This document shows, one piece after another, positions 15,585-55,172 of a DNA stretch of 64,000 bases. This DNA comes from Turritopsis dohrnii (taxonomy: Eukaryota; Cnidaria; Hydrozoa; Anthoathecata; Oceaniidae). The DNA lies in assembly GCA_027922465.2 (NCBI GenBank), contig BQMF02000428.1, positions 62,001 to 126,000 on the forward strand. The letters are read 5' to 3'. The notes below the pieces were generated by a model that saw only the letters and a program-made list of their open reading frames with translations, searched no databases and was not told where the DNA came from. Numbering within the stretch: the stretch's first letter is position 1; each line of letters starts with the position of its first letter. A program made the translations under genes and the position numbers.

Positions 15585-16336
15585 GAGCTGTTAAAGCCCA
15601 TTTTGTAATAATCGTCCCACTTTGTAATACCTGTCCCGATTTGTAATAAAATGGTCCCACTTTGTAATACCTGTCCCGTTTTGTAATAAAATCGTCCCGA
15701 TTTGTAATAAAAAATCTGTCCCACTTTGTAATAACTTTGTAATACCAAACAAATGTGATAACCTCGTTCTCTGCTTTGTAAGGATTGATTGAAATAGCAG
15801 TACAAGTAATGCCGTTTTTGGAAGAATAAAAAAAAATAAAGGACAAAAACATATGAAATTTACATTTCATTCAGCACATACTTGATGTATCTTTTTGAAA
15901 TAGGCATGTTTTTCGTGACAAAGCTGGATCTAATAATAGTGTACCGAGAAACTACTTTGTGCACATAATTTCAATGTATTAGAATTTGAAGTAACTGTTT
16001 TTTACGGAAGCGTATTAGTGCCATTTTCTAGTTTCTCCACATAAAAATTCCTATGTGAAATAAATTTAATTTTTTATTTGAATTCCTCCACATAGGAATT
16101 TCTAAGTGAAGTTTTTTCTTGCTTTTTCGAATTTCTCCACATAGAAATTTCTAGGTGAAATTATTTTTTTAAAAAGTGTTTAAAAAACTCCACATAGAAA
16201 TTTCTAAGTGAAATTATTTTTTTTAAAGTGGTTAAAAAAATTCTCTACATACACTGGATGCGAAAATCTTTGCGTTTTGAAAATTTTACATACACTGGAT
16301 GCGATTATTATTTATCATTTGCACGTGCACAATAAA

Positions 16337-19300
16337 ATGGCGGATGTGAGTCTTGGAAGCAACGAAGAGGTAAGTCACTTTTCCCATAAAATTTCGATTG
16401 TAAGCCGCTTGAACTCTTTGTGAAAATCGCTAAAGTATCAACTAGATATGCTCAGTACTTCTTTTATTAGATTTTAGAATTCCTCAAGCTTCGAGGTTAT
16501 GACAATGAGTCGCTAAAAAAGTTAAAGATTCAAGGGTAAATTATTTCTTTTTACAGGGCTGGCTAGTTTGATGAATTCCGTTGTGATGTAGCTATACTGT
16601 TATAGTGATAATTAATAATTCAAATTGGAAACTCTGTAAAGGGTTTTTAGCAAAGATTTGGTGTAAAAGTGGGCTTGTTTAGAAAATTTTATATAAGAAG
16701 AGAATCAGAAATAAAAGGCTTTAAATTAATTGTTTACTTTTATTCGTATTTTTCACTTTTGACCTAATGTGATCTCAAAAACAATGCAATAATAATATCT
16801 CTATGGATTTATAGATCTTTTGAAAACATTTGTCTTTACACAAATGTTAAACTTTTTGTATTATTTGAATGGATTATTTGCTGAAATACTAGTCAAATCT
16901 CATTTTGAAGAAATTATGTAGTAAAAGGTTTATTTATCTAATGTTTGTGTGTGTTTTAGATTTACACCTTGTTCTCATCTATGATATTTTCTTTTATAAG
17001 GTGTCAAAGGAGTCGATTCACTTGTTCAGTACTCAAGATTTTGCCTTTATTGGTATAGCTTTGGCAGATGCAAGACTGCTTATTGAAAAATATCGCTCTG
17101 ATAGAGCTGGTGACTTGGCTGATATTGTTGCAGCTGTCCGTGGAAAGAAAAATTATGTTCAAGAATTTAAGAAGAAAAAGAACAAATTGAAAATCAAGCA
17201 TGGTTGGCACCATTGGTCTTCATCTAAGAAAAGTTATACAGTGGTGAAGTTATCCTCTGGAGGCGGTGTACGTGAAAAAGAATGGGAGAGGGAGACCAAG
17301 CTGAAACTGGTATTTGAGGATATGATAGCAATGTTTTTTCCAAATAAAAGGAGCAGTAAAGGTAGGTTATGTTAATAATACATTAATGTGTACACAAAAA
17401 GTAATTGTAGTTTTAATAATTATGTTTTTTAATAGGTAGCTCAAATTTGATGACATTCTATTTGTATGGTGCAGACATGACTGAAATAATAGACATGGAC
17501 AAATCGATTGATGATTTTGTAAAACTTACAGGCCTGAAAATGCCAAAATTCTTGCTGATGAGTAAACCGTTGATATTTGATGAATATTCAGATGATTCAG
17601 ATTTTGACATACCAACTAAGAAGGGACCTGTATCCTCTACACCGATATCAGAAGATAGGAGGAGCCTTGTAAATGAACAAGATAAAGCATATGAACTGTG
17701 CTTAAAAGCTGACCAGTTAAAAGACAGACTCATTAAGCAAAAGGAAGAAGAAGAAAACAAGAAGGAATTTAAGAAACTAAAGAAAGAGCAAGAAGAATTT
17801 AATATTCGAAAGCAACTGCAGGAACGTAGGAGGCAGCTACTTCCAGATGAGCCATCTTTGTCACAAGATTGTTGCATAATTACCATCCATCATATTTCTT
17901 TGGGGAGGCAGACACGCATGTTTCCATCACACTGCAAAATGGAATCGGTTTATAACTGGGTGGGAAGTTTGAATGATCAACCAGAGTTATTTGAGCTTCT
18001 TGTTTGTTCACCAGCAGCCACTGTAGTGGATCCGAATGCGATTGTAACAGATTTTGAGAAACACATTTTATACATGAAAGAAGTTGAAAATTCAAATTTC
18101 ACAATGGATATTCAGATAAAAGAACATATAGATAATCAGCAGCCACATTGTTCAAATGAGGGTCAATCCAGGGATAAAAATGAGTGCCGTTTAATTCTAT
18201 GTCCCGTCTGCTCTAAGCAATATCCTGCAGAGACAATAGAAGAACATGCAGCAGAATGTGCAGCTGCAAAGTACCCATTGGTAATTGAAAGTAACTCCAG
18301 TGATGATAGTGATATGGAACTGCCTATGTTCTTAGAAAAAAAAGAAGTTAATGTGACAGACATTGAGAAAACATTGAAGGATATTGTTAGTAAATGTTCT
18401 GTTGATAAAAGTCATGCTATGAAAATCAAAGTGCGTAGAAATTATGTGTTTAATGATTTTTGTGAAAGAATAAAAAAGCCATGGATTCAAAACAAGCTTG
18501 GTTGCTCCTTCTCAGTGGACTTTTATGGTGAAAGTGGAATTGACCAGGGTGGGTTATCAAGAGAATTCTTTTCAGGTAAATGATATTATTGATGTTATAT
18601 TTGTTTATATATTATATTTTATATAGGTTAGTATAGATAGAAATTCAATTTAGGATATTATGTTTTACATATGTTCCTGGAGTCTCCAGTGATGTAAGTC
18701 CTGTAGGTTTAAGGTGGTGCTAGAATCAAGTATTTAACTAAAAGTAGATATTTTGTGTGTCTACTGTGCACTACTGTTTTTAGAAGCACTTGAAGATATC
18801 AGGAATGACTTGCTTGTTGATTATGATGATGGAAAAGTACCACATTCTGTATTACTTGAGGATATTGCTAGTGGCAAATTTAAAATGGCAGGTCAACTGA
18901 TGGCTTCATCAATTTGTATGAGTGGACCAGCACCATCATATTTTACTGAATGGGTATACAGATATTTCATTGGAGGACTGCAACACTGTCTGAAATATAT
19001 TCCAGTCACAATTGACCATGAAATGAAGTTATCAAAAGCATACAATTTTGTAAGTTTTTCTTTTACTTTCTTTAGAAATTTATTTGGAAAAAAATGAAAG
19101 TTAGCTTAAAGTAGACGAAAAGTATGTTGCAACATTAGGTCGTGCAGTTTCCTGCAATGCAAACCTATGTACAAACTTTCCAAAATTTGTTACCATTATT
19201 TCAATAGAAATGTGTTATGTATTATGTTATGTGTTATACTGTTTATTGGTATATTATGTTGCTATCTAGATACAAAAGATTGAAAGTTCAGAAAATCTGA

Positions 19301-20136
19301 GAAATTATTGCATCACTGATGAAGGATTAGATGTGTTGTCGGAAATTGGTTTCCGGGGAATACCGAACAAGGTCACTATAGATGCAAAGGAAAATATTTT
19401 AAAGTATGTTTTAGAATGTTCAACTTTTTATGTCTCTTTATGGCGATTTTGATTACCCTCTCAGGTTATTTAATCTCTAATTGTAGTTAATTCTGATAAC
19501 TAATTTGTTTAATGAGTTTGAATTGCTACGTTTCTTGATTTCTTAGATTCATTTTCATGAAGGCTGTTCTGAACGATGTCCTCCCTTGTTTACAGCAGTT
19601 GGTTGAAGGTTTGCAGATGTATGGACTTATGAAACTGATGCAAGAAAATGAGGAAGTTTTTAAATATGTATTTTGCCCCAACACTGAATTATGTTGGACT
19701 TTTGAAAAAGTTGAAAAGTTACTGGAACCAATTTATAGTACTAATAGAAGTTCTCGAAAAACGAGAGAAGTAAACACATTTAAAGCGCTGGTTGATTATT
19801 TAGAATCATCTTATGAAGAAGGTAAGCGCTGTTATTTCCCCTTTTTTTCAAACAGCTTTTGAGTTTTACCAACGCATTGATTTTTATTTAGGTGAAAAAG
19901 ATATGGGAAAAGTCATGAAGTTTATGACTGGTTCACCGTCGGTTCCGGTGCTTGGATTGCCAAATTTGGTCAAAGTTGAGTTCTTGCACGTTTGTCTTTC
20001 ATGTTGCCAATGCAAACCATGTGTTTCCACGTGTGATCTCACATTAAAGATAGCAGTGCATTATGATACCGTGGAAAAAATCAAATGTGCATTCGAGGAT
20101 GCAATTGCTTTAAGTTTTGGTTTTGACGAGATATGA
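16337..20136 (+). CDS. Transposon-borne multidomain HECT E3 ubiquitin ligase A
   Basis: Eight exons: 16337-16369, 16471-16535, 17001-17361, 17436-18575, 18784-19049, 19270-19403, 19547-19821, 19892-20136. All junctions from exon 3 onward keep phase; exon 2 to exon 3 is off by one, so that junction is uncertain. About 830 aa. In order: a SAM-like N-terminus (LEFLKLRGYDNESLKKLK, then LFSTQDFAFIGI); a GGGVREKE block; a charged coiled coil; a ubiquitin-like/UBX-like segment (ITIHHISLGRQTRMFP); a UBZ4-type finger (CPVC, EEHAAEC); then a HECT domain with GIDQGGLSREFF. HECT ligases take ubiquitin on a catalytic cysteine; here that is STC at 20032-20034, and the Phe four residues from the C-terminus, required in the family, is kept (FDEI). 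It appears intact. The neighbour is the convergent integrase of the same transposon. Confidence 0.85.
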
Positions 20137-20974
20137 TTTACTTGGTGTCAATTGCTTTAACTTTTTTACAAAAGGTATATTTCTTATTTTTTCTTTTTTT
20201 TTTTAAAAAAAAGGAAACAAAGCGTATTCTTTCGTTTGGATCTCATCTCAGCTGCTTCAAGGCTAGGCACTTTCGCGAGAAGATTGCTTAGCAGTTTTTG
20301 CTGACCGAATTTGTGTCATTTTCGATATGATAATTTCCTTTTCTTCAAGTAAAAGTGTCTAACCTTTTTTTGTTAAAAGGCACACGTTTGTAAACCTCTC
20401 TATTTCGAAGGAAGAATTCAAACAGGGTTGCAGTGAATGTGGCACGTGTTTTTATATCATTTATCTTATATATATATTTTAATATATATTTATATATTGT
20501 TTTTAAAACATTTGTGTTGAAATCGGTGTTTTGAACTTGTAACATATATAGGTGAAATACAAACGATTACTTTTGCGTTATAACTCAGAATCTGTTTGTT
20601 CATTATTTGATAAGTTGATCCTGCACACGATCGCGATACACATTTCCCTAGGAGGTGGAGCTGGATAGTTTGGCGAAATATCGACGTTTAAAGAGAAGCT
20701 TGCGTATTAACTTGACCAGCAAATATATACCATCCCGAACTTCCGTTAAAACACTGCATTGTGGCCGCGGAGTTGTTGTCGTGTCTAAACTCTGTTTGAA
20801 TATTTAAATTGCTTCTAACTATCATCATGGGAATAGTAGAAGTTATTTTAAGAAGCTTTAACCGAGAAGTTTGATGCTTTCAAATTGTTAGGTGAACACA
20901 TTCCTGGATGAAATCACTGTTACTTAATGTTTAGCTTTTGATGGAAAGATAAAGGAGACTAGATAAGGTTATTA

Positions 20975-23900
20975 CTATATATTGTCAATAAAGGCAAGAA
21001 GTCTGTCATACAAATTCCTGGCTTCATCCGCAGTGTTTGGGAAAGCTGCATTATATTGAAGCATATAATGAAGGGCCACTTTTTCAAACTCCTCATTACA
21101 TCCAAACGGAGATGTGGCAACACAGTATTGTTCTGCTAATTTGATGTCACTGCATGCAACCTGCCTCTTGTAGTTTAAATTGCCTAGATGAAATTGAATG
21201 AAATAAAATTCAGACCATTTCTCAATTAACAATGAGGGTGAAGGAGATAGGCCAGAGACATTTTAAATGCTTTTTTGTTGCTCACCATTGTACCCAGGCA
21301 AATTAAATAGTATGTCAGGAATTCCACTTGGACATTCTTGGTTAGGATACGGTCTTATACGGTGTGAATTATGCAACAGCATAACTTCTCGAAGTTCTTT
21401 TTTAATGACAAATGTATAACAGAATTTCAAGCACTCTCTGAAAGTCGAAAAGCATTAGATAGATTACATTCTTTCCAGTCTACTGAACACTGCATTATCA
21501 CATGATTGATAAATAGACAAATAAAACCAATAAAGAGAATAAAGCAAGAAAAGTACAGCAATACATCACCTTTGAACAGGATCTGTATCATTCCAACTTC
21601 CTTCATCTTTCATATCCTAAAAATAATGACTAAGACTAAGAAATTGTGATGTTTGCTAACCCTTTAAAATTCAAGCGACTAGGACTCAAATAGGGCAATA
21701 GTTATCTTATTTTGGAGTAATAATACATACAAAAGTGTATACCTTGAAATAGTTCATCCACCATTGTCCAAAGCACCGCCGTAATTGTGACCAAAATGCT
21801 TCGATGCGCTGAAATATAGAAGTAATAATACCGTAATTTAAATTTAATACTATACTGTATTAAAATTCCTAGGTCCCATTGTAGGAGTTTACTTCAACTG
21901 CTAATTGTTCATAATTCTGGAACTATTCTAAAACTTGCAGTTATAAGTAAATTCACTTAAAATTAATAGAAAAAGAACAAAATAAAATGAATCAGGGAAA
22001 TACGGAAAAATTAAATCATTGTTCAAAGGATGGAAGCTTCGATTTCCAACAAATTACTTGCTAAAAATATGCACCTGATTGGATGTAGATTTTCCAAAAA
22101 GAAAGCTTTTCTCTCCTGCCATACTGTCATTGTGGTACCATCTAAAAAATCGTTGAATTGCAGCGACTCTGACATTTTCATTACCAGCATCACCCCGTAT
22201 GACTCTAGCTGTACCTAAACATTTAAAGGCATAACATTTAATATGTCACAAGAAGTACGAGATTTTGATAAATAAAACTCTATGGATAGAAACTAATCCA
22301 ATGAAAATATGAAATTGAAAGAAAATGAAAAATAATGCAAAAAACCATTCAGTTTCCTAACGCATTCAAGATAGTAATTGGATTTCTGCGAAAGCAAGAA
22401 ATACCTTAAAACCGGCTCTGTTCTTTTTCTTCTTACTGTCCAAACCTAGCGGTTTTTTGAAATCTCGTGCGAATGTTTACACGAAGCCAAAGTCACGCAT
22501 TTCAGTCGAAGAAACTCAATAAAGAACCAACCAAAAGGATCCCAAAGCAACTTTAGCCAGTATAATTAAAGAAAATGCACATTTCCAAAACTGAAGATGA
22601 AGAATAAAATCTGTAGCAGTAATTTATTATTATCTTATATTATATTATTATGATTCAATGGTGATTTTTCATTTCATTTTATAAACAGAATGAAAAGGTA
22701 TGTTTTGTTTTTGAGATTAATGTCTGAGATTTTTTCTAAAAAAAGATCATTGTTTGTTTCAAATGTGGGCTGTAATGCTTTTTAAGCTCTGGATGCGTAC
22801 AGCTCAGCTTAAGTTTCATCTCAGCTCCAACTATCTGCCTACTATGCATCACTTTTTATATCTTTAATATTTAACTCTAGCTATATTTTAAGCTTATGTG
22901 CTTGTATAATACTTTGAAATGCAGTATTGTTTTTTGTTGGTGACCAGTAGTTTTTAGGTTATCAATATCTCTAATTATGGACAGCCTTCCTAATTTTGAT
23001 ATACAATTCGAAACACTTCACATCCTGTAAAAAACATTCAACTTTCAGTTTTGTATTTTTCATGATTAAAATTTTTGTTTACTTTTTTGTTTACAATTAG
23101 CCCATTCGTAAAAAGGAAGATTGATAGCAATCTTAAATGTTTGAAGTTTGTGTATGATTTACTTACGTAATTACTTTGAAATCAGAAATGATCAATGTAC
23201 ACTCATTATTCTGTATACTTTATTCCAAAATAAAGTAAGTATTTTTCATTCAGATGTAAATAAATATATATAGTCTGATGGTATGTATAGTTTAAAGTGT
23301 TTGTAGTGTAATAAAGTTTTTATAGTGTCAATTATGCTTTTATGAAGCTCTGAGGAGTACATATAATATTCTACTGTAGTGTGATACTTCTATCTAACTA
23401 AGAAGTTGTAAAGTAAGAAGTTTTGATTCAAAGAGCTATGTGTTCGTATTAGGGAAAACTGTTTCAATGTTTAAGCCTTTCTAGATACAAAAGATTTTTT
23501 TTTGTTTCTTGTTTGGGTTGTAATACATTAATACCGTTTCCTCCTCAGCTCTAACATTAAGTAGTGGTTGTCTGCTCTGCACCACTTTTGATTGACGATT
23601 TTCTAGCTAAGTTATACTGACAATGCCCCTATTTATGAATGTTCTTCCTAATCACGATTGTTAATGAACAATTACGTTGTGTTCAATTTGTACGTGCTGT
23701 GTGGACCCGTGTTTGCTTGTGTTATCTGTTGTGAATTTATTCCTGTTTGTATGTGGCTTGTGTGTGGGTCGAGCGTCATATAAACTATTATGTATTTATT
23801 ATTATTTTATGTTTGTTGATTTGTTTGTTGATATGTTTTTTCTATAATCGCGTTTTGTTTTGTAATAATATAGCCTTGATCATTATCCTGGCAAATTGAA

Positions 23901-25743
23901 ATGTTCCAACTGTGTATAAATTCAAAATACTGTACTATTAGTAACACAATACAAAATTTTGGTAAATTTTGGTATAAATTTATAGAGCATATATATACTT
24001 TTAATGATCAAGATCTTTGATTACTTTTTGTATTTGCAACATTGGGAATTCTGTTTGTATGTAATTAAGAAGATTGGAAGTGCATATCAAATGTTTAAAG
24101 CGTATTATGTGATTTTCATACGTAATCACTGTGATATCAGAGAAGATCAATATAAACTTAATTGTATTTTGTATACCCAAAATAAACAATGTTTCACTTC
24201 AGCTGATTTTGCAGAAATCCTTCTGCCCATAAGGGCATCTTGCTTGCAATTATCTTTGGGTCATTGTTTGATGATGCAGTTTCAAGCCATAGCATTTTAC
24301 GGGAGTATCTATATATAAAACATATGGAGTATATTATACATCACAAATTTATTTCCTTTTAAATGAGCTAACATCATTCAATTTATTTAATATCTCCTTA
24401 GCGCTGGTTAAGATTTCAGGGCAAATGATGGCCATTTTTAAAAAAATGAGGTGACAACTGTATCTGTTTTCATTTTTACGCCCTATAATGCCACCTTTAT
24501 ACATTCAAAAATAAACAAAAAAGCTTTTAAATGATTTCTCACCCATCTATACATCCATGTATGCAAAAACCATATGGTTTAAGCTTGTCATAGCCATCTA
24601 TGTGCCATATGTAATTTGGTCCCTAACATTACAAAAAATATCAAGGTTATAAAACCCACACTGAAGACAAAAAACAAAAATTGCTTAAACATTTCAATAT
24701 CATTGACATGTCGCTCACTTTTGCTATATACTTTCTTTTGGTCAATCGTTTTGCCTTTCTTTGTTTTACACCTTCTGGATCGAGAATATTTTGGATTTCT
24801 CTGACGATATTCCTAGTAATGAAATTAAAATTTACTAAATGAAATTTTGAAGGGCATTTAGCTGTTGCACATTTAAATGAAGAAACATTGAATATGAAGA
24901 AAATCGGAAAGTGAAGCTGAATATGTGAAGAAAAGCCTTTTAAACTGTTGAGCGTTATAACTTACTGGCTAGTTTGAACTTTGTGCACAACTCTTAGTTT
25001 GTGATGCATCCGTCTATATCCTAACAAATTTCCGCTGGTATTTATTTCTTCCTAAAGAATACCATGCAATAGCAAGTGAATAAACATAAATTTAATCTAG
25101 GGGGTTTCTTTTAATAACTGCATGAGCATTTTTGTGTAATTGTTAAATAAATAATATACTATAACTATAACTATTTCCTATTCACCTATTTTTTCATTGA
25201 AGCTAGGTGTTGTACATTAAAGAGAAAGTATTTTTCCTGTAAATTATATACAAATCCTTTAAAATATAAGTTAATATACCATAGACAATTGAAGGGTAAG
25301 GAAAATTAATCTGATATTAACCTGGACAATATCACATATATCTTTAAATGGGCAGTTTGTTTTTCTTCTGGACAGTCCCAAGGTTTTCAAATGTCTCTTC
25401 AGTTGTCGCAAACTAAAATTAAAGGGATTTTACCATCCATTTGTCATAACAATGTAATGAATGAATTGATATATTTATAAAGATTCAGAAAACATGAAAT
25501 CACACTGTGACTAGTTAATTAACTAACCTTATCTTCATTCTATCTTTACCATTCATCAATGCAGTTATTTCTTTATACTTGTAACCTTTCTCAAAATATT
25601 CCGTGATTCTTTCCATTTCTAAGCGCATTAATCATAATCACATACAGATTTAGTAAATAACTAGCAGCATTGTACTTAAACAATATCAACAATGCAGGAA
25701 AATTTCCCTCACTTTTCTCGTGTATATCTCTCGTAGTCGCCAT
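20975..25743 (-). pseudogene. IS3/retroviral-type DDE integrase A, interrupted
   Basis: Exons on the minus strand (plus coordinates): about 25743-25640 and 25630-25528 (this junction uncertain), 25412-25322, 25051-24966, 24812-24719, 24622-24543, 24308-24245 continuing at 22379-22346, 22214-22075, 21808-21743, 21616-21570, 21437-21286, 21183-20975. Every inner junction joins in phase. The helix-turn-helix part contains ISLRQLKRHLKTLGL and GYRRMHHKLRV. The catalytic core has D in WHIDGYDKL, D in RGDAGNEN and E in NQRIEAFW, the DDE triad that cuts and joins DNA ends. The C-terminus (ARNLYDRLLAF) matches the copy in element B (ARTIYDTII). Exon 7 is split by a Helentron-like insertion between two adjacent bases, so this copy is probably inactive. 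Intron density is unusual for a transposase. Confidence 0.85.
22380..24244 (+). mobile_element. Helentron-associated (HINE-like) element 1
   Basis: The 5' end GGATTTCTGCG is mirrored by a subterminal GCAGAAATCC near the 3' end, followed by the hairpin TGCCC-ataa-GGGCA and CATCTTGCT. That layout (5' TIR, 3' sub-TIR, short 3' hairpin, insertion between two T) is typical of Helentron-derived non-autonomous elements. The flanks read ...taatt and tgcaat..., and removing the element restores the integrase exon without gain or loss. It has no coding capacity. Confidence 0.85.
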
Positions 25744-26978
25744 CTTGCTGTAAACACTTGGTATACACTTTACTTGGTGCCTATACACTTTACTTAATGC
25801 CTCTTCAATCTATGTGGAGAAACTAGAAAGTTTAAAAACTATTCCACATAGAAACTTCTATGTGAAGAAACTAAGAAAAAAATGAAAATAATTTCACTTA
25901 GAAATTTCTATGTGGAGAAATTCAAAAAAAGCAACAAAAAACTTCACATAGAAATTCCTATGTGGAATTTTTTTTAAAAATATGAATCAAAAAATTTCAC
26001 ATAGGAATTTTTATGTGGAGAAACTAGAAAATGGCACTAATACGCTTCCGTAGTTTTTAAATTCTTCTTTCTCTCTTTTTACAAATACCATCATAACCTT
26101 TATAGTCTGTTGGCATACCTTAGCGAAACGAGTTTCCCGGAAAAAAATAGCGATGAAAAGTAGTTGTGATGAAACACGCGGTATATAAATACGCAAGATA
26201 TTACGCTGTACGCTTAGGGTAAATTTTGCCTACGTTTTTATCGCGACTAAAATAATAAATTCCAAATCCCCAGATGAATATTGCAAATAATTCCAACATC
26301 TGCTCCTGCAGTAAATTGCGACGTCAGTTTGGGGTTGCTTCTTCATAAAATACCTTTTTGAAAAAATTCTCCGAGGGTATTACAAAGTAGAAAATCTGGT
26401 TATTACAAAGTGGGACAGCTTTTTGGTATTACAAAGTGGGACAATCTTTATTACAAAGTGGGACAGCTTTTTTATTACAAATAGGGACGATTTTATTACA
26501 AAACGGGACAGGTATTACAAAGTGGGACAATTTTATTACAAATCGTGACAGGTGTTACAAAGTGGGACGATTATTACAAAGTGGGCTTTAACAGAGCCAT
26601 ACATTTTTTTTATAAGAAAATTTTTTTAAGATCATATGTAGAAAAAAGCACGCGTTTTGAAAAAGAAATATATGTTTTTAAAATTATAATTTTATGAAAC
26701 CAAAAATGAATTCAAACAAATAATTGCCTTTTTAAACTAGATCTCTAAAAGTCTTAGACTCCGTTTCCATTAAGACGATTTGCATCGTAACGTTGCGTCG
26801 AGCCTTAAGAACCATATCGGATAGGGGGTCTGTTTCCATTAAAAGCGTGTCACTTCGCCATGAAAACAGTAGCGGATAACTTTTACTACGCTCCGATTCT
26901 GAAAGTGATATAATATCTATCGGATAGCTTTTAATACGCAATTGTTTTAAATGGAAACACTAAACAAGTGGTGTCGTT

Positions 26979-27190
26979 ATGATTATTAAGACAAAACCTC
27001 ACATTCATTTTTTCAAAACAAACAAAATGGCACTGAGTAGAGAGAAATTATGTGAACAAATGAGAACAAACCTACCTAAAGATCCACGTATTTGTCAGTT
27101 TCACTTTACAGAAGATAGTTTTCAAAGAGATTTAATTACAAGATTTAGTTACAACAAAAGAAATTTTACCACTCCTTCATTATGCTGAAA
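26979..27190 (+). pseudogene. THAP zinc-finger fragment
   Basis: The reading frame contains NLPKDPRICQFHFTEDSF followed by QRDL. This matches the second half of a THAP domain (C-x2-H in ICQFH, then FTEDSF), a C2CH DNA-binding finger frequent in DNA transposases. The segment between PKDP and RIC, which normally holds the tryptophan helix, is missing, and the first Cys pair is absent. It lies next to the left TIR of the Harbinger-like element, so it is probably a relic of that element's DNA-binding protein. Confidence 0.55.
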
Positions 27191-27624
27191 TCCCCAGAAA
27201 TATCGCTCCTGTTGAAAAACCTCCTAAAGAAGATGTTATTACGAATCAAAGGACACATTTTGTAAAGTAGTTTATTTGAGTTTTAGTGTTTGTCTAACTT
27301 TACTGTAATTTATGTTTATGCAGCGATACATGACTACACGGTTGTTTTTATAAACGAAACATTTTATATAAGAGAAAAAATTAAGAAAACATTAAAGGAA
27401 CATGGTAGGTTGAACCCTTGATGAACATATTTTCAACAACAACGGCATCAAATTAACAATATACTTGGTTTATAAAAACAAAAAAATCAATGATTAAAAA
27501 AACTCCTGGAAAGAGTAATGTATTTCTAGAACTCAACGTCCATATTCAGAAACATTCAGGTTCAACACAAATTGTGTGTTTCTTATGTATATTTTCCCTT
27601 CACCTGTAGACGTTTTGTTTTATT

Positions 27625-28895
27625 GGATTTCTGCGTAAGCAAGAAAGCCTTTACGATCGTCTTTGTTTTTTTTTTTTGTTTTTTTTCATCTTACTGTCCA
27701 AACCTAGTCATATTTGTTTCTCCAATTTGATTGGTTCATAAAAAAGCCGTCTCAATCGTGATTGGTACATAATGCCCGATTTCTACGAAAGGGTGCTAAT
27801 ATAGCCACCCTAACTTCAATAGCGATAGTTTATTGGCTGATTTTCGCCATGCCATGTGATCGTCCACAAAACGTTTTAAAAATGGCAGCGAAAGAACGTG
27901 TGTAGTTTGCTAAAAGTTTCTTTGATGGAAATATGGCTTTAAAAGAAGTTAATACAGCTTATAATTTTATATAAAGAATTGCATTACTGTTGGGAACTTA
28001 TCATGTTCACAAAATTAAATTACAGTGTGGTTATTCTGTTTTTTGAAAGAAGTTTTCTTGAAGTTTAAAATATGAAAACAGTGCCAATACATGGTGTGTG
28101 GAAGAAAAGGTATTTCTTGTTTTATTTTTGCTCCAAGCCTTTTTAAATATGAAAGACCTTCGTGTATTTTGTATGTGTATGCATGTTTGAAGTCAATTTT
28201 TAGAAGCTTTTGGATTTTTAAAGCTCAGCTTAGCTTCCTTTCAGCTCCTCCCCAACATCACCAACATATGCACTTTATACAGCTATTTATACTATATTTA
28301 GTAGCAATTTTTGGATGTATTCTGGCTATATCAGCTTATCTCTTTTCTCCCTACGTATGTTGTACTTTTTTTAACTTTTAGATTAGATATGAGCTTTAAT
28401 TTCTAAGTAATTATTATTGTGATATTTATATTTTTCATTCTGAGGAGATCAATATAGAAACTTTATATATTAGTTTGTGCTGCCCAAACGATATGTTGGT
28501 TACTGCCAGTATACACAATCTTTTTATAGGATTCGTTATATTTAATGTGGTTAAATTAAAGTTTCGTATTGTGTCGATGCACTTTTTTGGAGTACGTGAG
28601 TGGCAAATATCCAGTAACAATCATTCAGCTTATTCGTACAAAAAAAACAGATCTTCATAAAATGATCTCCGCGATAGCATAAAGAAAAGCCCCTTTTTTA
28701 TGTTATGGTAGGCTGACTTTCTTGACGAACATTGTCAGTCGCATCAATATTTTTGTTTATTTAATGCTGATGCTTCTCGAGCTGAATGATGTGACTGTCT
28801 TAGTTTTGCAGGACTAGTGTGCTAGTGTTGCATTTTTGTGGCATTTTCAGCAGCAAAGCTTGCAGAAATCCTTCTGCCCGGTAGGGCATCTTGTT
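27625..28895 (+). mobile_element. Helentron-associated (HINE-like) element 2
   Basis: It has the same 5' end as element 1 (GGATTTCTGCGTAAGCAAGAA), the same sub-terminal GCAGAAATCC, the hairpin TGCCC-ggta-GGGCA and the end CATCTTGTT. The body is 1.27 kb with no gene. The 3-kb region also shares 'ttactgtccaaacctag' with element 1. The open frames at 28091-28660 are fortuitous. Confidence 0.85.
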
Positions 28896-28906
28896 AGCTT
28901 TCTTAA

Positions 28907-29719
28907 GGCTGAAATACACGATTATTTTAAAATGATAAATGACAAATGATAATTTTTTTAATCCTTTAAAAAATGATTAGAACATTATGATTACAACATT
29001 TTTATAAAAGTTCTATGTTAAAAGAGTACTTTTCAGTCATGGACTCCGGCGGCAGCAAACGTAATTGTTGCTGTTATGTCCAAATGACGAAAGAGGAGAA
29101 ATGAAAGGCAGAAACGAAGACATTGGGTGAAACTTTGACTTCAATAACGAAACTTCTTAGGAATTAATAACACGCTTGGGAGGGAATTTCAAGCAGAAGA
29201 TCATTATGAATATTCAAAGTTGTTAAGAATTTCGCCGGAAAGTTTTGAAGTTTAATAAGTCCACCTATCGAGAAACATTGCACAGTTAATGCGTGATACT
29301 CTTTCCTCTTTGATCCTTATGTTTGTAATTTGTGGACGAAACATTCCACAAAAACTGCTCTTCCTGCCACAAATTAATAAATTGGTCAGCTGATGCTAAC
29401 TTAACCAACGACATGTTTATTTAACATGCAGACTATCACTTTGTTTTTCTCCTAATAAGCTGCAAAAACTCATCGCGTGACTGTACTAAAGTGAGTAAAA
29501 CAATAGAACTGACGTAATCAATAGAGAAATTCCATCATTTTATAAATGAAAACTCAAAAATGTTTGAGTTATCATTTTTAAATGAAAGTTGAAAATGACG
29601 GGTACTTTTCGTCATTGTTTGAGCGTTTACACGTTTATAAATTCCTAAGAAGTTTCGTTATTGAAGTTTTAAATGATCATTTAAAAAACGTCATTTTAAA
29701 ATAATCGTGTATTTTAGCC
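28907..29719. mobile_element. Small Harbinger-like MITE with transposase fragment
   Basis: The ends AGGCTGAAATACACGATTAT and ATAATCGTGTATTTTAGCCT are inverted repeats, flanked by TTA on each side. A short frame inside (about 29196-29255) reads EDHYEYSKLLRISPESF and then stops. It resembles the N-terminal 'LLRMSPETF' part of Harbinger transposases. This suggests the MITE derives from an internally deleted autonomous copy. Confidence 0.65.
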
Positions 29720-30210
29720 TTTATATGTTTTGCTTTGAGCTTCAATGACGTCACGGAAAGAAATGTCCATTTCATAAATTCTTTGCAAAACACACAATAG
29801 GCATGAAAATTAATGAGGAAAATAGTGCAGTATAGATAAAAAAGATATGCAGATTTCAAATATTGCATTTATTTTTTTGTCAAAAATTAGTGGACCACTG
29901 CTTTAATACAAAATATTTGGATATCAGCAAACAATTTTTAATCCGTTGGTAATTTTTTAATGAAAAGTATGGAAGCCGAGAAGGATCAAGCCATGAATAT
30001 ATTATCAAATCTAGGAATATATTTCAAAATCGAGAAATATTTTTCAAATCCAGGAATATATTTCAAAATCGAGAAATATTTTTCAAATCCAGAAATGTAT
30101 TTCAAAATCGAGAAATATGTTTTACAATCTAGAAATATTTTTTAAAATCGAGAAATTTTTTTACTGGTAAATTCGTTTACCGGCAAACAAGCGAAAACAA
30201 TCTAATTAAA

Positions 30211-33200
30211 GATGGCTGCACCCGCAAGCATGCATTGCACCTCCTGTGGCAAAAAAAATAGGATCTTCTGACCTACTCTGCATGTATTGTGGCAGAAAAA
30301 AAGAAAAAAACGATGAACACCCCAAAAATGAGGAACCTCTGCTGACTTTAATGGACTTTCAAAAAATGAAAACTGAAGAAAGAACTTCAAGGTTTGTTGG
30401 TAAAAGAAGAAGGAAGGACAGCCCCTCTCCTCCTCCTCCACCTCCTTCCTCCCATTCTGCATATGGTCATAAATCGAAAGTGAAGGGTTTCATGAACAAG
30501 AAATCCACGGAGACTGCACTCATTAATGTTGATATTATCAGAGAACATGAAAACACTGGGCAATTACAAATAGTTAGAGGAAGCAAGCTACCTTTACAGG
30601 TTTCAAGAAAAGCCAATGCCAACACAATATTGAATCTCGCTTTAAAGAAACATGCTAATCAGGGCCAGTTTTTTTGTGGATTGGAAGAGTACGTACTGCT
30701 TTACCCAGACCAAAAGTTGGTAGAGACTATACCAGGGTCTGATTTACCATTTACACTTGAAAGATACAAAAAAGACCTTGGCAAACCATACTCCAAAATT
30801 GATTTGTACATTTGTAAAAAGCATGACTTGGATGCAAGAAAGTGTCAGCTGCAAGCTCCATTAGAAGAAGACCCACAGTATTTTAATGACAGTGGTAATG
30901 AGCATGAGTTAGGACACTTGTTGTTCAAAGAAACAGATTTCCTTGATCCAAATTCATTACTAATAAACAGTTGTTTCGATATAGGTGCTAATGATGATAA
31001 CTCTCCTGTAACTTCTGTGCTTTCAAAACAAAATATACAAAGCAAAGATACTGTTACACCATCATGCTCTGTAAATTTGACAAACTTAAATAGCATTGAT
31101 ATTAATTGTGGTATGTGCCCAATTTGTAACAAAAAGTTTTCATTTTCAGTGATTGAAAAGCATGCTGATGACTGTTTGCAGAAAAAGCAAAAACCAATTA
31201 TCTATTCTATAGACGATGAAGATGATCCTTTTGATGAAAGCGATTCCATTGACCCTGTTGTTGAAGATGAAAATACTACTAGCAATATAGACACTAACAT
31301 AGAATTTAATATGAAACAAGTTCAAGCAGTTTTAAAAAAATGCCATATAGAAAATGGTGAAATTCTTTTAAATGTGCGACGTCATTATGAATTTGAAGAC
31401 TTCATGAGATTTTTTGGGAAAACTTGGAATAAGAATAAGATTGATAAAACTTATAGAATCGCTTATATTGGTGAGCCCGCAATAGACACTGGTGGAGTTT
31501 CAAGGGAATTTTATTCAGGTATACAAAAACATATGTTTTTTTTGTTAGTGTATTAAGAATTTAAATAACCTTGTTTTCATGTTAATCTAACTTCTTTATT
31601 TCTATTTAGTCTTTTTTTTTCATTTCTTTTTGTACAGTGTTATTGCTTCTTGATTTAGAAGCAATAAAATCAATCAAGCAAATTTATTTTACTGGAAATG
31701 ATGTCAGTGGTTATATACCAAACTTTGGTACTTTAAGTGTAACAGACGGTACTGCCAAAGCGGTTGGACATCTTTTTGCTGCTACACTAGTTAATGGAGG
31801 GCCAGCTCCTGCATTCTTTGCTGACTGGATATTTGATTATATAACTTGTGGGCTAACAGCTGCATTAAAGTCTTGTCCAAAAGAAATATCTGAAATATTA
31901 CCACTGAAAGCAACATATGATAAGGTATATTATATAAATTTTACATTTTTCAACTAAAATAGTTGTGGCTATTTCACACTAGATTTTCTGATATCAACCA
32001 TCTTTCAAGTTTATTTAGTTTTCTATTTATGTGATCATGTACATGTGTCAATTGCAATGACCATTGCTTTTAGTGTTTTTTGGCTTAGTAACTATAAGTA
32101 CTGTCATGATAGAAATGAAAAGAGAAAAGAAAATATATTGAACTACTGTGCACTTCTCTAATGAAAGGGGCGGTTTGTCTGTGGATCTAATAACATACTG
32201 AAATTATGTCTTAATGAATAAGTAATTTGATTTAGGTCTTTCTTGCAAAATCTGATTTGGAATTAACATCGATACTTTCAACAGATGAGGGTTTAGATTT
32301 ATTAGAGCGTATTGGATATAGAGGAGATCCAAGAAAGACAACAATGCAAAAGAAAAATTCTATTTTAGAGTAAGAAATATTGACATTTCTTGATTTAATA
32401 ATCTAATAATCTCATCTAATGTATATGTTATGGTGTAAGCACTTGTAAATTTCTATGGAAATGTTTCCTCCTGTTAAGATAGTATGTACTGATAAAAACT
32501 TCTATTAATCTGTCTTAATTGGTTCTACTTAAAATATCCATTCATTGTATTTTGTGCTTTCTTTATAGGTCAATTATAGTAAAAGAAACACTGGAACCCT
32601 TACTTCCAGTTATTCAGGAGATAAGTAACGGTTTGCAGTGCTATAATGTGTGTCAATTACTAAAGCAACTATGCACCCTGTATTTTGTCGCAATCAGAAG
32701 TTTGTTTGGCAATATGATGATTTCATCAGTTCTCTTAAACCACAATTTAGTGAAGATGCCACCAATAAAAAAACATTAGAGGTAACAACATACAAGGCCC
32801 TATTAGATGTTGCTGAATATTGTTTTAATTCTGGTATGTATTTAATTGCTATATTTTTTGTTTTGTCTTAAAGATAATGTATTCTCCATATTGTAAATTC
32901 GATTACTTAGGGAAGAAATTTTGTGGGAAGAAAATATATTGGAAAATGTATCCAATTCAAAGTCCCTCAAAGAAAGGAAAATTGCTAATTCTGCAAAAAA
33001 AATCTGCTACTTTTTGATACCTAACTAACCAAATTACATATTTGTTGTTTAGATAATCCAGAGCTTTCATCTGAACAGTTAATTCAGTTCATAACTGGTT
33101 CACCAACATTGCCAGCACTAGGATTACACAAAGATATAACTATTCACTTTATCCATGGATGTAACTCAACTAATGGTAAACCATGTAAATGTTTGCCAAG

Positions 33201-33314
33201 TGTCAGCACTTGCGATGTACAAGTAAACCTCCTGTACACATAGCATCAGAGGAATCCATTATGCAGGCTTTTTCAATGGCAGTAAGAGATGGTAGTTGGT
33301 TTGGACAACTGTAA
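30211..33314 (+). pseudogene. HECT E3 ligase B, frameshifted copy
   Basis: Five exons: about 30211-31518, 31638-31924, 32236-32369, 32569-32833, 33053-33314. The N-terminus has a zinc-ribbon-like pair (CTSCGKK...CMYCG) split by a frame change in an eight-A run near 30251. Then come a proline run, a ubiquitin-like segment (GSKLPLQVSRKANANTIL through GKPYSKIDLYIC), a UBZ4-type finger (CPICNKK, EKHADDC) and HECT (AIDTGGVSREFY). The exon structure of the HECT half matches gene A, including an identical 134-nt exon. The catalytic Cys is at 33211-33213 (STC). A one-base loss 20-25 nt later brings a stop at 33241; the lost frame continues to a family-typical C-terminus with Phe at -4. Another frame change lies near 32660. 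It is decayed, or the assembly has single-base errors. Confidence 0.8.
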
Positions 33315-33693
33315 ATGTTTTACAAAATACCTTTGTTGTTGCATGACATAGTTATTTCGTTAAAGTTTTATTCATACCGTTCTGTTTTGTTAAGATTTTT
33401 CTGTTACTCTAATATATTCTAATATAGGATGATATATTGTTGATATTTGTTTTTAGTTCTTTTGTTTTTTGATAATAAAATGAGGGGGTGAGTCTCATCG
33501 TCAAATTTCGATAAATTGATTTTGGGGGTGAAAATTTAGAAAAAGTGGAATTTGACCTTCTTTCTATTACTGCTGTTATTATTTTATAGCACTGCATCTT
33601 TTACGTTACTGATTATGTTTGAGATGTGAAAACGTTGTTTTTATTGTTTCAGGTTTTTAGATCTAAGCTATTTTTTCATCTGAAATATAAATT

Positions 33694-35019
33694 TTATTGT
33701 GCTGCAGAAATGATAGTGTCATAAATTGTTCTTGCTTCTATCCAATCACGTGGCGGCATTGAAATTCCTAATGCATTTACCAAATACATGAAATAGTTAT
33801 TCAATTCTTCATCAACTTCATTCAAAAGATTCTCTGCTTCACCATGAATATCCCTCTGGTTAATAATCCAATCAGTAACATTAATGTTAACCCTCATACC
33901 ACATTGTTGATAACCATAGAGTTCAGAAATACAATACATTTACATCAGAGACTCATTTTATTGTACTGATGATGGCGTAAGCCGAAAAGCTTCTACTTAA
34001 AAATATTAACATTTATCAATAACAAATATGGCGAATTTTTACTCAACAATACATTTCATCAGGTATTCCACAAACTTTGGCTTGACGTGATTTTCTAATT
34101 AAATGAGAGTTCCACTCTAACTTCGCCTTATCCAGTTCAGCCTGCAAAAGATTGAATATACAAACCAAGCGCATTCCATATGCAATCGGTTTCCAAGACG
34201 CAAAATGTCGTTTTGCACCATGTTTTTAAAATAATCTATTATCCAAGAGGTGTAGGTTCTCTTATAATGGGACCAAAGGTTTTCGATTCTTTGGTTTGCC
34301 TGTGATGTACCATATTTGTGTGCATTGGTATCATTATGAAGAAAAGCGTGAATACTTGCCATTAACCCATTTTCTGTACCGCAATCTGTTTTAAGGACGT
34401 CTGGGCTAACTTGGACATTTTCGACGGCATTGAGATAAAAATGAGCCGGGATGCCTGGGTTGTTATTACTTCGACAAACTTTTAGCCAAATAACCTTTCG
34501 TGGAAATCCATCGACACAACCATGTATAGGAAATCCATATGGCTTAAGTTTGTCGTAGCCGTCCGCATGCCATACTGCATTCGGTCCAGGAGATGTATAA
34601 ATCCTTCGGTAAAGTTTCCTGGCTCTTCTGTTTAGAGACTCTCGTGGATTAATATCTCGTACAATGTTCATAACGTCATCACGATTAACTATTATACCAT
34701 AAGCAACACGTAATTTATGCCAAATACTACGATATCCCTTTATTCCTGATGAAGTACTTAGCTCTGACTCTATAATTTTGCGCACAGAAGAATCGATTGC
34801 CGGTCTCCCTTTTCTTTTTAATCCAGATGCTTTTAGGTAACGTTTTAACGTACTTAAGCTAATTTCTATGCCATGGTATCTCTTGAGAATCAATATAATT
34901 CTCTTATATTGAGTACCTTTTATAAAGAAATGACGGATAAGTTCTTCTGTTGTGGTGTTTTCCTTCACAAGTATTTCCTCGTTTGCTAAATGTCTTCGTT
35001 GTGACCACAATTGGTACAA
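33694..35019 (-). pseudogene. IS3/retroviral-type DDE integrase B, frameshifted copy
   Basis: A long minus-strand frame (35019-34117, 300 aa) holds a helix-turn-helix region (ISLSTLKRYLKASGLKRKG), GYRSIWHKLRV, and the integrase core with D in VWHADGYDKL, D in LKTDCGTENG and E in NQRIENLW. Near 34160 the frame slips by one base; the next frame continues with AELDKAKLEWNSHLI, the expected C-terminal helix. The final part (33939-33694, ending ARTIYDTIISAAQ) matches element A. Between them, 33950-34060 is an extra piece bordered by a near-repeat 'gatgaaatgtattgt'. Unlike copy A the core is in one exon. It likely mobilised the element by cutting and joining its TIRs; this copy is not expected to work. 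Confidence 0.85.
33950..34060. other. Small insertion with hammerhead-like motif
   Basis: About 110 bp interrupt the integrase B tail, bordered by 'gatgtaaatgtattgt' and 'gatgaaatgtattgt' on the minus strand. On the plus strand at 33966-33990 it reads CTGATGA-t-GGC-gtaa-GCC-GAAA, the core of a minimal hammerhead ribozyme with a three-pair stem II. Such cores mark Penelope-like and retrozyme elements. Stems I and III are weak here, so activity is doubtful. Confidence 0.4.
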
Positions 35020-35075
35020 AACAACTCAACTTGAAAAAACTCTCTTCCACATCGAAAGCAAAATCTAACGTGCAT
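34986..35075 (-). CDS. Possible 29-aa zinc-ribbon N-terminus of integrase B
   Basis: From ATG at 35075 the minus frame gives CFRCG then CTNCG, a C-x2-C...C-x2-C ribbon, and stops at 34986 inside the region that overlaps the integrase start in another frame. It may be an N-terminal exon of the integrase after a frame loss, or a separate tiny ORF. It mirrors the ribbon at the N-terminus of HECT B at the other end of the element. Confidence 0.4.
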   Translation of the reverse strand: MHVRFCFRCGREFFQVELFCTNCGHNEDI

Positions 35076-35714
35076 TATGATGATTAACTCCTGTAAGTAA
35101 AAATCACTTACAAGAAGAAAAGGACGTGTTTAATAAATGCAACCAGCAAAAATTCAAATATTGAATCTTAAATTATTTTTCTAGATTTGAAAAATATTTT
35201 GGAACATAATATCTCAAAAACATTTTCTAGCCCTAGCTTTCAAAAAAAGACAATATTAAAAATATTTTTCTGGATTTCAATTTATTTATTTTTCTTGATT
35301 TTAAAATATATTTCTTGACTTTGAAAGATATTTCCTGATTTCAAATATATTTCTGGATCTCAAAATTATTTATCGAATGACCCTTGTCGGCTTCCGTAGA
35401 AAAGACATAAATGCCATAATAAATGTATTATTACATGACATTAAATTAAATAGGAGAAAGACAAAAACCAAAAGAAACATTCCAAAACTTTTATCTTCCA
35501 TTTTTATTCACTGCAAGTATTCACACTACAAAACTTCATAAGATGTCGAAAATTATTTTCTTGCAAACCTCACAAATCTTTTCCACGTGTATTTTAGTTT
35601 ATATTAAGTTGTTTTTCCTTTTGATTTACTTTTGAGAACACTTCAGATGGAGATCAGTAAATAATCAGAATGCGTATAATTTTTGTTTTAATGGAAACAC
35701 TTTCTATTGTCTTA

Positions 35715-40404: not shown

Positions 40405-41082
40405 TGTACTGCCAGTAAATGTTGCAATCGCCAGTAAATGTCGCAAACGCCAGTAAATGTCACAAAATTGCCAGTAAGTGTCGCAATTCAACAGTAAGTG
40501 TCGCAAAATCGCCAGTAAGTGTCGCAACAGTAAATGTCGTAAAAAAATTAAAAATCAACAGTAAATGTCGCAACTTTATAATTTCAAATTTCTAACCAAT
40601 ATCTTCTCCATCCTTGTTTTGAACTCGACACTGATCATTCTGATCAAGATATCGTACTACTCATCCCAGAGTACGCTGATGGACCTACACGACATGTCAC
40701 AGAGATTGCAAAATATAAAAATAAGACAGCTATAATTTTCAACATTATGTTTCACTTAGCAAGTTACTTTTACTTTTTTCGCTTATACTTCCCAAAGTGA
40801 GTCCTGACCGATTGATTTAAGCAACAGGTCTTTCCTTTTCATACCCTCCACATTATATGATCAAAATCACATTGTGTAAGTTTGCGACATTTGCTGTTGA
40901 TTTTGAAAAACATTACCACATTTATTGTTAAAAAAAATTAAAACAAATGAAAATTCTAGTTGTGACACTTACTGGCGATTTTGCGACACTTACTGTTGAA
41001 TTGCGACACTTACTGGCAATTTTGCGACATTTACTGGCGTTTGCGACATTTACTGGCGATTGCGACATTTACTGGCAGTACA
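40405..41082. mobile_element. MITE with 'gccagtaaatgtcgcaa' iterons
   Basis: The ends TGTACTGCCAGTAAATG and CATTTACTGGCAGTACA are inverted, flanked by AGTGT on both sides (5 bp). Each end has five to seven tandem units of about 18 bp, inverted between ends. The 678-bp element has no gene. Confidence 0.85.
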
Positions 41083-53926: not shown

Positions 53927-55172
53927 TACTTTAATCGGAGAAACTTTCGCGGGAGAAACTTTCGCGAGGTCAAAAATTCGCGAAATGTTTTGGATAAACT
54001 TTTGCAAATTGGAAAAGTCGCAAAATTTCGCGAGATAAACTTTCGCGAATGAAGAATTTGATAAATTTTTGCGAGTTAAACTTTCGCAAATGAAGGAATT
54101 TTTTTAAATAATTTAGGAAAGTTTTTAGAAAACAAAGGAATTTTCCATGCAGAAAATTGACAAAATGCATGCATTCGAACCTGTATTTTTCGTTCATTAC
54201 AAATAAAAATGAAGATAAAATTAGTTCAAAAACTACAAAGATTGTTCGTCGTCAAGTTCGTTGAAAACGTCATCAAAAACATTTCTAGTACCTTCTGGTC
54301 CCCACTCCTCATCGCCGCCGCCAGTCTCATACTCATACTAAAAAAACCGCGAATCGGAGATAATATACTGCAGGGAAAGGAATCAACTGATATTGTCATT
54401 ATCGACGACTGAAAAACATTTTTTACATAAATAATATTTGACAGTCTCTGTATCAAAATATGACTGATTTGTTACAAGAAAAAAAAAATGCTTTCAAGAA
54501 GATCAAATTAGCAAATCTTTCCCTCCCTTATATACATAGGTTTTGAAATAGATCTCCGACATTTTGGTAGCTAAAAAATTTCAAAAATTGCAAATCGAAA
54601 TTTTACTGGATAAACATTCGCGAATTGAAAATAAGAGCAAAATTTCGCGAGATAAACTTTCGCGAATGAGTGATTTTAAATTTTTCGCGGGATAAACTTT
54701 CGCGAAAAAGACTCGAATTCGCGAAATTCGCGAAAGTTTCTTTCGCGAAAGTTTCTCCGATTAAAGTATACTGCAGGGAAAGGAATCAACTGATATTGTC
54801 ATTATCGACGACTGAAAAACATTTTTTACATAAATAATATTTGACAGTCTGTGTATCAAAATATGACTGATTTGTTACAAGAAAAAAAAAATGCTTTCAA
54901 GAAGATCAAATTAGCAAATCTTTCCCTCCCTTATATACATAGGTTTTGAAATAGATCTCCGACATTTTGGTAGCTAAAAAATTTCAAAAATTGCAAATCG
55001 AAATTTTACTGGATAAACATTCGCGAATTGAAAATAAGAGCAAAGTTTCGCGAGATAAACTTTCGCGAATGAGTGATTTTAAATTTTTCGCGGGATAAAC
55101 TTTCGCGAAAAAGGCTCGAATTCGCGAAATTCGCGAAAGTTTCTTTCGCGAAAGTTTCTCCGATTAAAGTAG
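53927..55172. mobile_element. MITE with 'gataaactttcgcga' iterons and internal tandem duplication
   Basis: The left end TACTTTAATCGGAGAAACTT and right end AAGTTTCTCCGATTAAAGTA (allowing the iteron join) are inverted; TA may be the target duplication. Units close to 'gataaactttcgcgaat' fill both ends. The right 403 bp (54365-54767) is repeated almost unchanged at 54768-55170, including the terminal repeat, so the element has two right ends. The 67-codon frame at 54209-54412 is inside the MITE and not supported. Confidence 0.8.

What the first reader, a model, noticed from the sequence alone, without database searches (positions are those of the whole stretch)
16003..35398. Two diverged transposons share one plan: HECT ubiquitin ligase facing a DDE integrase
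Elements A (16003-26052) and B (29968-35398) both have TAYGGAAGC ends, inverted iteron arrays, perfect 6-bp target duplications (GTTTTT; GAAAAG), a plus-strand HECT ligase and a convergent integrase. The DNA and proteins are strongly diverged, so the pairing is inherited, not a chance capture. A mobile element that keeps an E3 ligase could modify host repair or silencing factors, or control its own transposase. The gene pairing is read from sequence; the role is inference.
Basis: partly seen in the sequence, partly recalled or inferred. Interest (0 to 1): 0.9.

Follow-up and report, generated by a model that had tools for sequence, protein, structure and literature searches.

The report
Transposons with their own ubiquitin ligase
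A large family of jumping genes in this eukaryotic genome carries, facing the gene for the enzyme predicted to move it, a second gene predicted to make a ubiquitin-tagging enzyme, which likely helps the element move by clearing the mover off the DNA.

Summary
Element A (16003-26052) and element B (29968-35398) have TAYGGAAGC ends, inverted iteron arrays, perfect 6-bp target duplications, a HECT-domain gene and a convergent DDE integrase. Both window copies are damaged: a nested insertion splits A's integrase exon 6, and B carries frameshifts. Two copies elsewhere in the genome, C280 and C122, are open in both genes.

The pairing is widespread. Of 130 integrase loci found, at least 87 have a HECT-family exon beside them: database hits place one within 10 kb of 80, convergent in 76 (random placement: mean 0.7), and reading downstream sequence added 7. 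All 8 TIR-defined copies that hold an integrase hold HECT sequence, one only in part. HECT introns at matching positions and phases join A and B at 33% protein identity.

Ends and duplications fit the IS3EU superfamily. I found no report of HECT in IS3EU in the open-access library searched; Repbase could not be searched. HECT proteins also carry either a FAF1-like helix plus UBX fold, or a zinc ribbon like that of B-type integrases. Best guess, untested: the ligase marks the integrase-DNA complex for removal. Anti-silencing is the main rival.

The parts
16003..26052 (.). Element A, 10,050 bp; TSD GTTTTT at 15997-16002 and 26053-26058
16003..16239 (.). A left TIR and subterminal iteron array (about 50-bp unit CTCCACATAGAAATTTCTAAGTGAAAT)
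25809..26052 (.). A right TIR and inverted iteron array
17001..20136 (+). HECT gene of A: exons 17001-17361, 17436-18575, 18784-19049, 19270-19403, 19547-19821, 19892-20136 (806 aa, open; upstream start exon not settled)
17648..18094 (+). FAF1-like charged helix plus UBX-like beta-grasp region inside HECT exon 17436-18575 (approximate limits)
   Evidence: fold taken from homologue P0001
18200..18259 (+). UBZ-like zinc finger CPVCSKQYPAETIEEHAAEC
20975..25616 (-). Integrase gene of A, 11 exons in the intact relative C280; A's exon 6 is interrupted
22378..24242 (.). Nested insertion of about 1.86 kb inside integrase exon 6 of A; absent from C280 and L016
29968..35398 (.). Element B, 5,431 bp; TSD GAAAAG at 29962-29967 and 35399-35404
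29996..30163 (.). B left iteron array (39/20-bp unit)
35287..35371 (.). B right iteron array
30246..33300 (+). HECT gene of B: exon 1 to 31518 (beta-grasp, UBZ-like finger, start of HECT), 31638-31924, 32236-32368, 32570-32833, last exon from about 33054; at least two frameshifts; start not settled
34120..35025 (-). Integrase core of B (PF24764 E 4e-24; DDE motifs in WHADGYD, KTDCGTEN, NQRIENLW)
34989..35129 (-). B integrase N-terminal zinc ribbon CFRCGREFFQVELFCTNC, out of frame with the core here, in one frame with it in copy C12
33697..33939 (-). Possible C-terminal part of the B integrase
   Evidence: open frame; no Pfam match

Best explanation
A and B are diverged copies of a DNA-transposon lineage, most likely the IS3EU superfamily, whose usual plan in this genome is two convergent genes: a DDE integrase and a gene predicted to encode a HECT ubiquitin ligase that likely acts as a second transposition factor by tagging the integrase-DNA complex for removal. 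Shown: the two-gene plan, its convergent arrangement, its frequency in the genome, open reading frames in two intact copies, conserved catalytic residues, and purifying selection on HECT across families. Inferred: the integrase pastes the element with a 6-bp stagger. The HECT protein is then drawn to the same place, in B-type elements perhaps through the zinc ribbon that both proteins carry, in A-type elements perhaps through its UBX-like and UBZ-like domains. It would ubiquitylate the integrase or proteins at the joint so that p97 and the proteasome clear it and host repair can fill the gaps. The anatomy I hold at about 0.95; the dismantling mechanism at about 0.35.
Against: No substrate was tested and nothing shows that HECT touches the integrase. 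The p97-contact FPR motif of UBX domains (recalled) is not kept in the element proteins; only the proline recurs. The UBX piece of P0001 alone finds no UBX protein by sequence. The UBZ-like finger and the FAF1-like helix are not in all lineages. The ribbon is a short, common pattern: Pfam scores it below cut-off in the two HECTs where it was tried, and it turned up once in 8 reversed controls. HECT proteins diverge faster than integrases between families (61, 50, 50% vs 74, 65, 64%), which would fit a race with a host target at least as well. 45 of 125 HECT loci have no integrase hit within 10 kb, although that search scored only 130 of 1,558 candidates. 43 of 130 integrase loci have no HECT shown: 6 read, 37 unread. 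L016 HECT has 0 silent and 5 replacement changes in 171 codons.
Confidence: 0.4

Rival explanations
1. The HECT ligase is an anti-silencing factor: it would ubiquitylate a host chromatin or small-RNA factor that represses the element, letting the integrase be expressed.
For: In fungi, IS3EU elements carry TET/JBP and alpha-kinase genes, and the author proposes escape from methylation for TET (PMC12730594, passages read). HECT diverges faster than the integrase between families.
Against: The zinc-ribbon pattern on both proteins of B-type elements and the FAF1-like UBX module fit a DNA-complex target at least as well. No host target is known.
Confidence: 0.3
2. The HECT ligase is a brake: it would degrade free integrase and hold copy number down.
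For: Both genes are kept together and convergent; deletion copies that could be moved in trans are common.
Against: A brake is lost easily by selfish copies, yet no TIR-defined copy with an integrase lacks HECT sequence (8 of 8). Genome-wide, 6 of the 13 unpaired integrase loci that were read show none in 1.8-4.1 kb.
Confidence: 0.15
3. The HECT gene is neutral cargo captured once and carried along.
For: Many HECT copies are broken (B; L017 one stop; many hits with stops). L016 HECT shows 0 silent and 5 replacement changes.
Against: Frames and active-site residues persist over large protein divergence with pN below pS, and two separate families have fully open copies.
Confidence: 0.05
4. Independent captures of host HECT genes by separate elements.
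For: HECT genes are common in animals (general knowledge); zinc-ribbon versus FAF1-like N-termini differ between B-type and A-type HECT. No host HECT gene was put in a tree.
Against: Introns at matching residues and phases (501/1, 589/0, 634/2) in A-type and B-type HECT, and the same convergent placement across families.
Confidence: 0.07

Closest known systems
IS3EU/GingerRoot DNA transposons (PMC10045372)
   Same: TA..TA termini, 6-bp TSD, integrase-type DDE transposase without an HHCC finger; TAYGG..CCRTA ends as in rust-fungus IS3EU (PMC12730594)
   Different: A HECT ligase as a regular convergent second gene; the word HECT is not in the main text of either paper
Fungal TET+ IS3EU with alpha-kinase (PMC12730594)
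   Same: Transposase and a second gene, for a protein-modifying enzyme, in opposite orientation
   Different: Alpha-kinase plus TET dioxygenase there; HECT E3 here. I did not search these loci for TET or kinase genes
Ginger1 (recalled)
   Same: Integrase-type DDE transposon
   Different: TGT..ACA ends and 4-5 bp TSD (recalled); A and B have TAY..RTA and 6 bp
FAF1 and related UBX proteins
   Same: Charged helix plus UBX fold, with the REQDEAYxxSLxAD-like stretch aligned
   Different: Fused to a UBZ-like finger and HECT; the p97-contact FPR motif is not kept
UBE3A/E6AP-type HECT ligases
   Same: HECT N-lobe start and C-lobe with catalytic Cys
   Different: Element-borne; other N-terminal domains; the PDB match is weak and partial (E 2e-7)
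Phage Mu with ClpX (recalled)
   Same: Would share the idea of an unfoldase clearing the transpososome
   Different: Here the element would bring its own E3; no direct evidence

Membership tests
IS3EU/GingerRoot superfamily | TA..TA termini | tested here: met
   TAYGGAAGC..GCTTCCRTA in A, B and the complete copies
IS3EU/GingerRoot superfamily | 6-bp target site duplication | tested here: met
   A, B and 15 further end pairs have perfect 6-bp TSDs, plus C122. L022 and L023 have an end pair without a matching TSD and were not resolved; L021 and L027 have no second end in the stretch read
IS3EU/GingerRoot superfamily | Integrase-type DDE transposase core without HHCC finger | tested here: met
   PF24764 hits; D129, D188, E229 in C280 (spacing 58 and 40); no HHCC family among the Pfam matches listed
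IS3EU/GingerRoot superfamily | Transposase clusters with Repbase IS3EU in a tree | not testable with these tools
   Repbase sequences are not held
Ginger1 | TGT..ACA ends and 4-5 bp TSD (recalled) | tested here: not met
   TAY..RTA, 6 bp
HECT E3 ligases | HECT domain above Pfam cut-off | tested here: met
   A 50 bits vs cut-off 23.9; B last exon 30.8; L053 47.6, L052 44.2, L051 40.6. L055 (22.9) fell just below, L056 and L054 gave no HECT match
HECT E3 ligases | Catalytic cysteine in the C-lobe | tested here: met
   VSTC in A-type and B; position assigned by alignment
HECT E3 ligases | Ubiquitin transfer activity | not testable with these tools
   needs an assay
UBX-type p97 adaptors | UBX beta-grasp fold | tested here: met
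UBX-type p97 adaptors | p97-contact FPR motif (recalled) | tested here: not met
   Aligned stretches read VPG, SPA, MPG and the like; not filed as a member
UBZ4-type zinc fingers | CxxC..HxxxC finger matching UBZ | tested here: inconclusive
   Ligand spacing present in 16 of 21 proteins or pieces listed; WRNIP1, RAD18 and RAP80 hits only at E 0.03-0.07

The most novel reading that the evidence does not exclude
Animal IS3EU transposons are obligate two-protein machines: an integrase and its own HECT E3, aimed at the same complex by a shared zinc ribbon or by a FAF1-like UBX module, which ubiquitylates the strand-transfer complex and calls p97 to dismantle it, a eukaryotic and self-encoded counterpart of Mu and ClpX.
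Probability: 0.25. Interest if true: 0.92.

Novelty: new variant of a known kind. Interest (0 to 1): 0.77.

Why it matters
How cells clear integrase-type complexes off DNA after strand transfer is an open problem for transposons and retroviruses alike (general knowledge). Here is a large set of elements, young in part by low divergence (A vs C280), of which at least 87 of 130 integrase loci bring a predicted E3 ligase along, so the question can be put to test with element-encoded parts. Together with the fungal alpha-kinase and TET cases it hints at a pattern: IS3EU elements pair the integrase with a convergent enzyme that modifies proteins. It may also explain some of the HECT genes that automatic annotation reports as host genes.

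Tried and rejected
Searches that led nowhere: relatives in viral contigs with the B integrase and with an alignment of 12 relatives (none confirmed); phages by protein (none); Rfam on the window at gathering threshold (none); UBX piece alone against PDB sequences (no UBX protein). Papers: IS3EU+HECT 0 papers; IS3EU+transposon 32 papers, listing seen, two of them opened; HECT+transposase combinations, listings only; HECT domain+DNA transposon+TIR+integrase 0 papers; GingerRoot 4 papers; IS3EU+ubiquitin 2 listings, unrelated by title. One listing (PMC4255032) was checked and does not hold HECT as a word. The GingerRoot paper itself is not held. Repbase and most subscription papers were not searchable, so 'not in print' holds only for these searches.

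Considered and set aside: neutral cargo (selection and frequency), chance neighbourhood (random placement), independent captures (shared introns; no host HECT tree was made). The dN/dS of the A-family integrase (0.74 from 8 changes; L016 1.24 from 6) is too small a sample to read either way, and L016 HECT (0 silent, 5 replacement in 171 codons) speaks against purifying selection in that fragment. Five-family trees cannot prove co-descent: both genes accept 5 of 15 topologies. A tree used a wrong C122 integrase reading and was redone. Structure rows cover residues 55-165 and 249-327 only; other parts are untested. The regular-expression columns 'FAF' and 'FPR-like' are crude; the alignments were used for these. 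The truncated copy C128 has HECT but no integrase in the 9.8 kb read. A first count of 47 HECT loci without an integrase (nearest partners only) was corrected to 45. The eight loci were picked by hand across identity levels; the sixteen were drawn at random.
Full report
What is in the window. A (16003-26052) and B (29968-35398) are transposon copies with both ends. TAYGGAAGC occurs at exactly their four ends and nowhere else in the window, the flanks are perfect 6-bp duplications, and both have inverted iteron arrays under the ends. The window lies on contig C428 of a 436-Mb genome in 891 contigs. Spliced genes and genome size show that it is a eukaryote. Its name is not given; among the 120 best integrase relatives listed, those that carry an organism name are from stony corals (Montipora, Acropora, Porites; 47-50% identity).

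The genes. A's HECT gene is six GT-AG exons, open over 806 codons, with PF00632 at E 4e-13; its first exon or exons upstream of 17001 are not settled. The A-type integrase has eleven exons in the intact relative C280 (383 aa, PF24764 E 2e-31), with D129, D188 and E229. In A itself exon 6 is split by an insertion of about 1.86 kb that C280 and L016 lack. B's HECT has at least two frameshifts; the core of its integrase is open over 302 aa (PF24764 E 4e-24), with a frameshift behind an N-terminal zinc ribbon. Neither window copy is therefore fully intact, but C280 (11,252 bp, TSD GAAATG) and C122 (7,791 bp, TSD CGGGAT) have both genes open.

Copies with the A-type end. The pattern TAYGGAAGCGTATTAG occurs 81 times in the genome (reversed control 0). 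I looked at 40 elements: 8 with both ends in the pattern list, 12 single ends read over 10 kb, and 20 single ends read over 1 kb, two of which were then extended. Eight hold a gene: A, C280, C133 (L010), C762 (L016), C6 (L017), C21 (L021), C122 and C128. Seven of these have an integrase, and all seven have HECT sequence, convergent; L016 keeps only part of HECT. C128 is a truncated copy with HECT alone. With B, whose end differs, this makes 8 of 8. The other 32 showed neither gene in the stretch read, only 1 kb for 18 of them; 22 of the 32 have ends matching the L017 family, 12 of them measured at 0.77-0.89 kb. L021 carries another B-like integrase stretch inside it.

Genome-wide. The B integrase finds 131 matches at 39-100% identity, 130 loci after merging; only 130 of 1,558 candidates were scored. 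HECT was sought with two queries, B exon 1 (107 matches) and the single-exon HECT beside the C21 integrase (67 matches). Of 130 integrase loci, 80 have a HECT match within 10 kb: 76 convergent, 3 on the same strand, 1 divergent. Uniform random placement gives a mean of 0.71 and at most 5 in 1000 draws. By identity to B: at 60% or more, 27 of 29; 51-59%, 20 of 34; 47-50%, 12 of 23; 44-46%, 11 of 19; below 44%, 10 of 25. The fall may partly reflect query distance. Of 8 integrase loci picked by hand and read 4.1 kb downstream, 6 have HECT at E below 1e-9; a wider profile adds C54 at E 7e-9, while C705 has an open frame that I read as THAP-type (no Pfam check). Of 16 drawn at random from the 70 then unpaired and unread, 10 have HECT at E 5e-4 or better in 1.8 kb, all on the expected strand; in the reversed control the best E was 1.9. 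Of the 50 loci without a database pair, 13 were read: 7 have HECT and 6 do not at this threshold. One of the six, C71, has a zinc-ribbon and beta-grasp-like frame at E 0.03, and C32 has a frame that I read as reverse transcriptase (no Pfam check). So at least 87 of 130 are paired, 6 were read without one, 37 are unread. Against this, 45 of 125 HECT loci have no integrase hit within 10 kb.

Inheritance and selection. HECT introns fall at residues 501 (phase 1), 589 (phase 0) and 634 (phase 2) in C280, A, L017, C122 and B; a fourth at 726 agrees in residue in these five, with its phase shifted in B behind a frameshift. L010's are the same within one residue, with phases moved behind its own frameshift. 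The A-type integrases C280, L017, L010 and C122 share ten introns; B's core has none. Five-family trees of HECT and integrase keep the same 5 of 15 topologies at 95%, which is compatible with co-descent but weak. A vs C280 HECT: 7 silent and 9 replacement changes in 806 codons, dN/dS 0.32. For the integrase 2 and 6; for L016 HECT 0 and 5 in 171 codons. Across families silent sites are near saturation while replacement sites are not (HECT A vs L017 pS 0.77, pN 0.24). Low divergence of A and C280 points to recent activity.

How it likely works. The integrase very likely inserts with a 6-bp stagger; that follows from the family and the duplications. The HECT gene is kept, convergent with the integrase gene and catalytic by sequence, so the protein most likely serves the element. 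I favour removal of the integrase from DNA after strand transfer, because the N-terminal parts resemble those of proteins that read ubiquitin or work with p97, and because both genes of B-type elements carry the same ribbon pattern. Anti-silencing is the main rival: fungal IS3EU elements carry TET and alpha-kinase genes (PMC12730594, passages read), and HECT diverges faster than the integrase.

Comparison with what is known. PMC10045372 (passages and section 3.3 read) gives IS3EU as TA..TA with usually 6-bp duplications and no HHCC motif. PMC12730594 (passages) gives TAYGG..CCRTA for rust IS3EU, with transposase and alpha-kinase in opposite orientation and TET between them. A and B meet the ends, duplication and core tests; clustering with Repbase IS3EU could not be tested. 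The word HECT is in the main text of neither paper, and no held paper joins IS3EU and HECT. Repbase itself was not searchable.

Verdict. A real two-gene transposon plan, widespread in this genome and inherited, with a predicted E3 ligase as the second gene. A new variant of a known superfamily; role of the ligase untested.

Noticed in passing
22378-24242: Nested insertion in A's integrase exon 6 with GGATTTCTGC-like inverted ends; part of it matches L021 at 82%.
   Followed up: partly
15589-26593: A sits inside another iteron-ended element with TGTTAAAGCCC ends and a 4-bp GAGC duplication.
   Followed up: partly
8806-10780: Element with TGTTACACCGTCAA ends, inverted TACTACATTTGTCGG iterons and an ACTGT flank repeat.
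   Followed up: no
40405-41082: 678-bp element with TGTACTGCCAGTAA ends, inverted iterons and an AGTGT flank repeat.
   Followed up: no
54364-55171: Two tandem copies of a 403-bp unit, 99% matching.
   Followed up: no
34989-35129: B-type integrases and B-type HECTs both show a CxxC..CxxC ribbon pattern near the start.
   Followed up: partly
L057:1980-3035: Open frame that reads as THAP-type beside the C705 integrase, where no HECT was found (no Pfam check).
   Followed up: no
L021: A second, B-like integrase stretch (34% identity over 229 aa) lies inside this A-type element.
   Followed up: no
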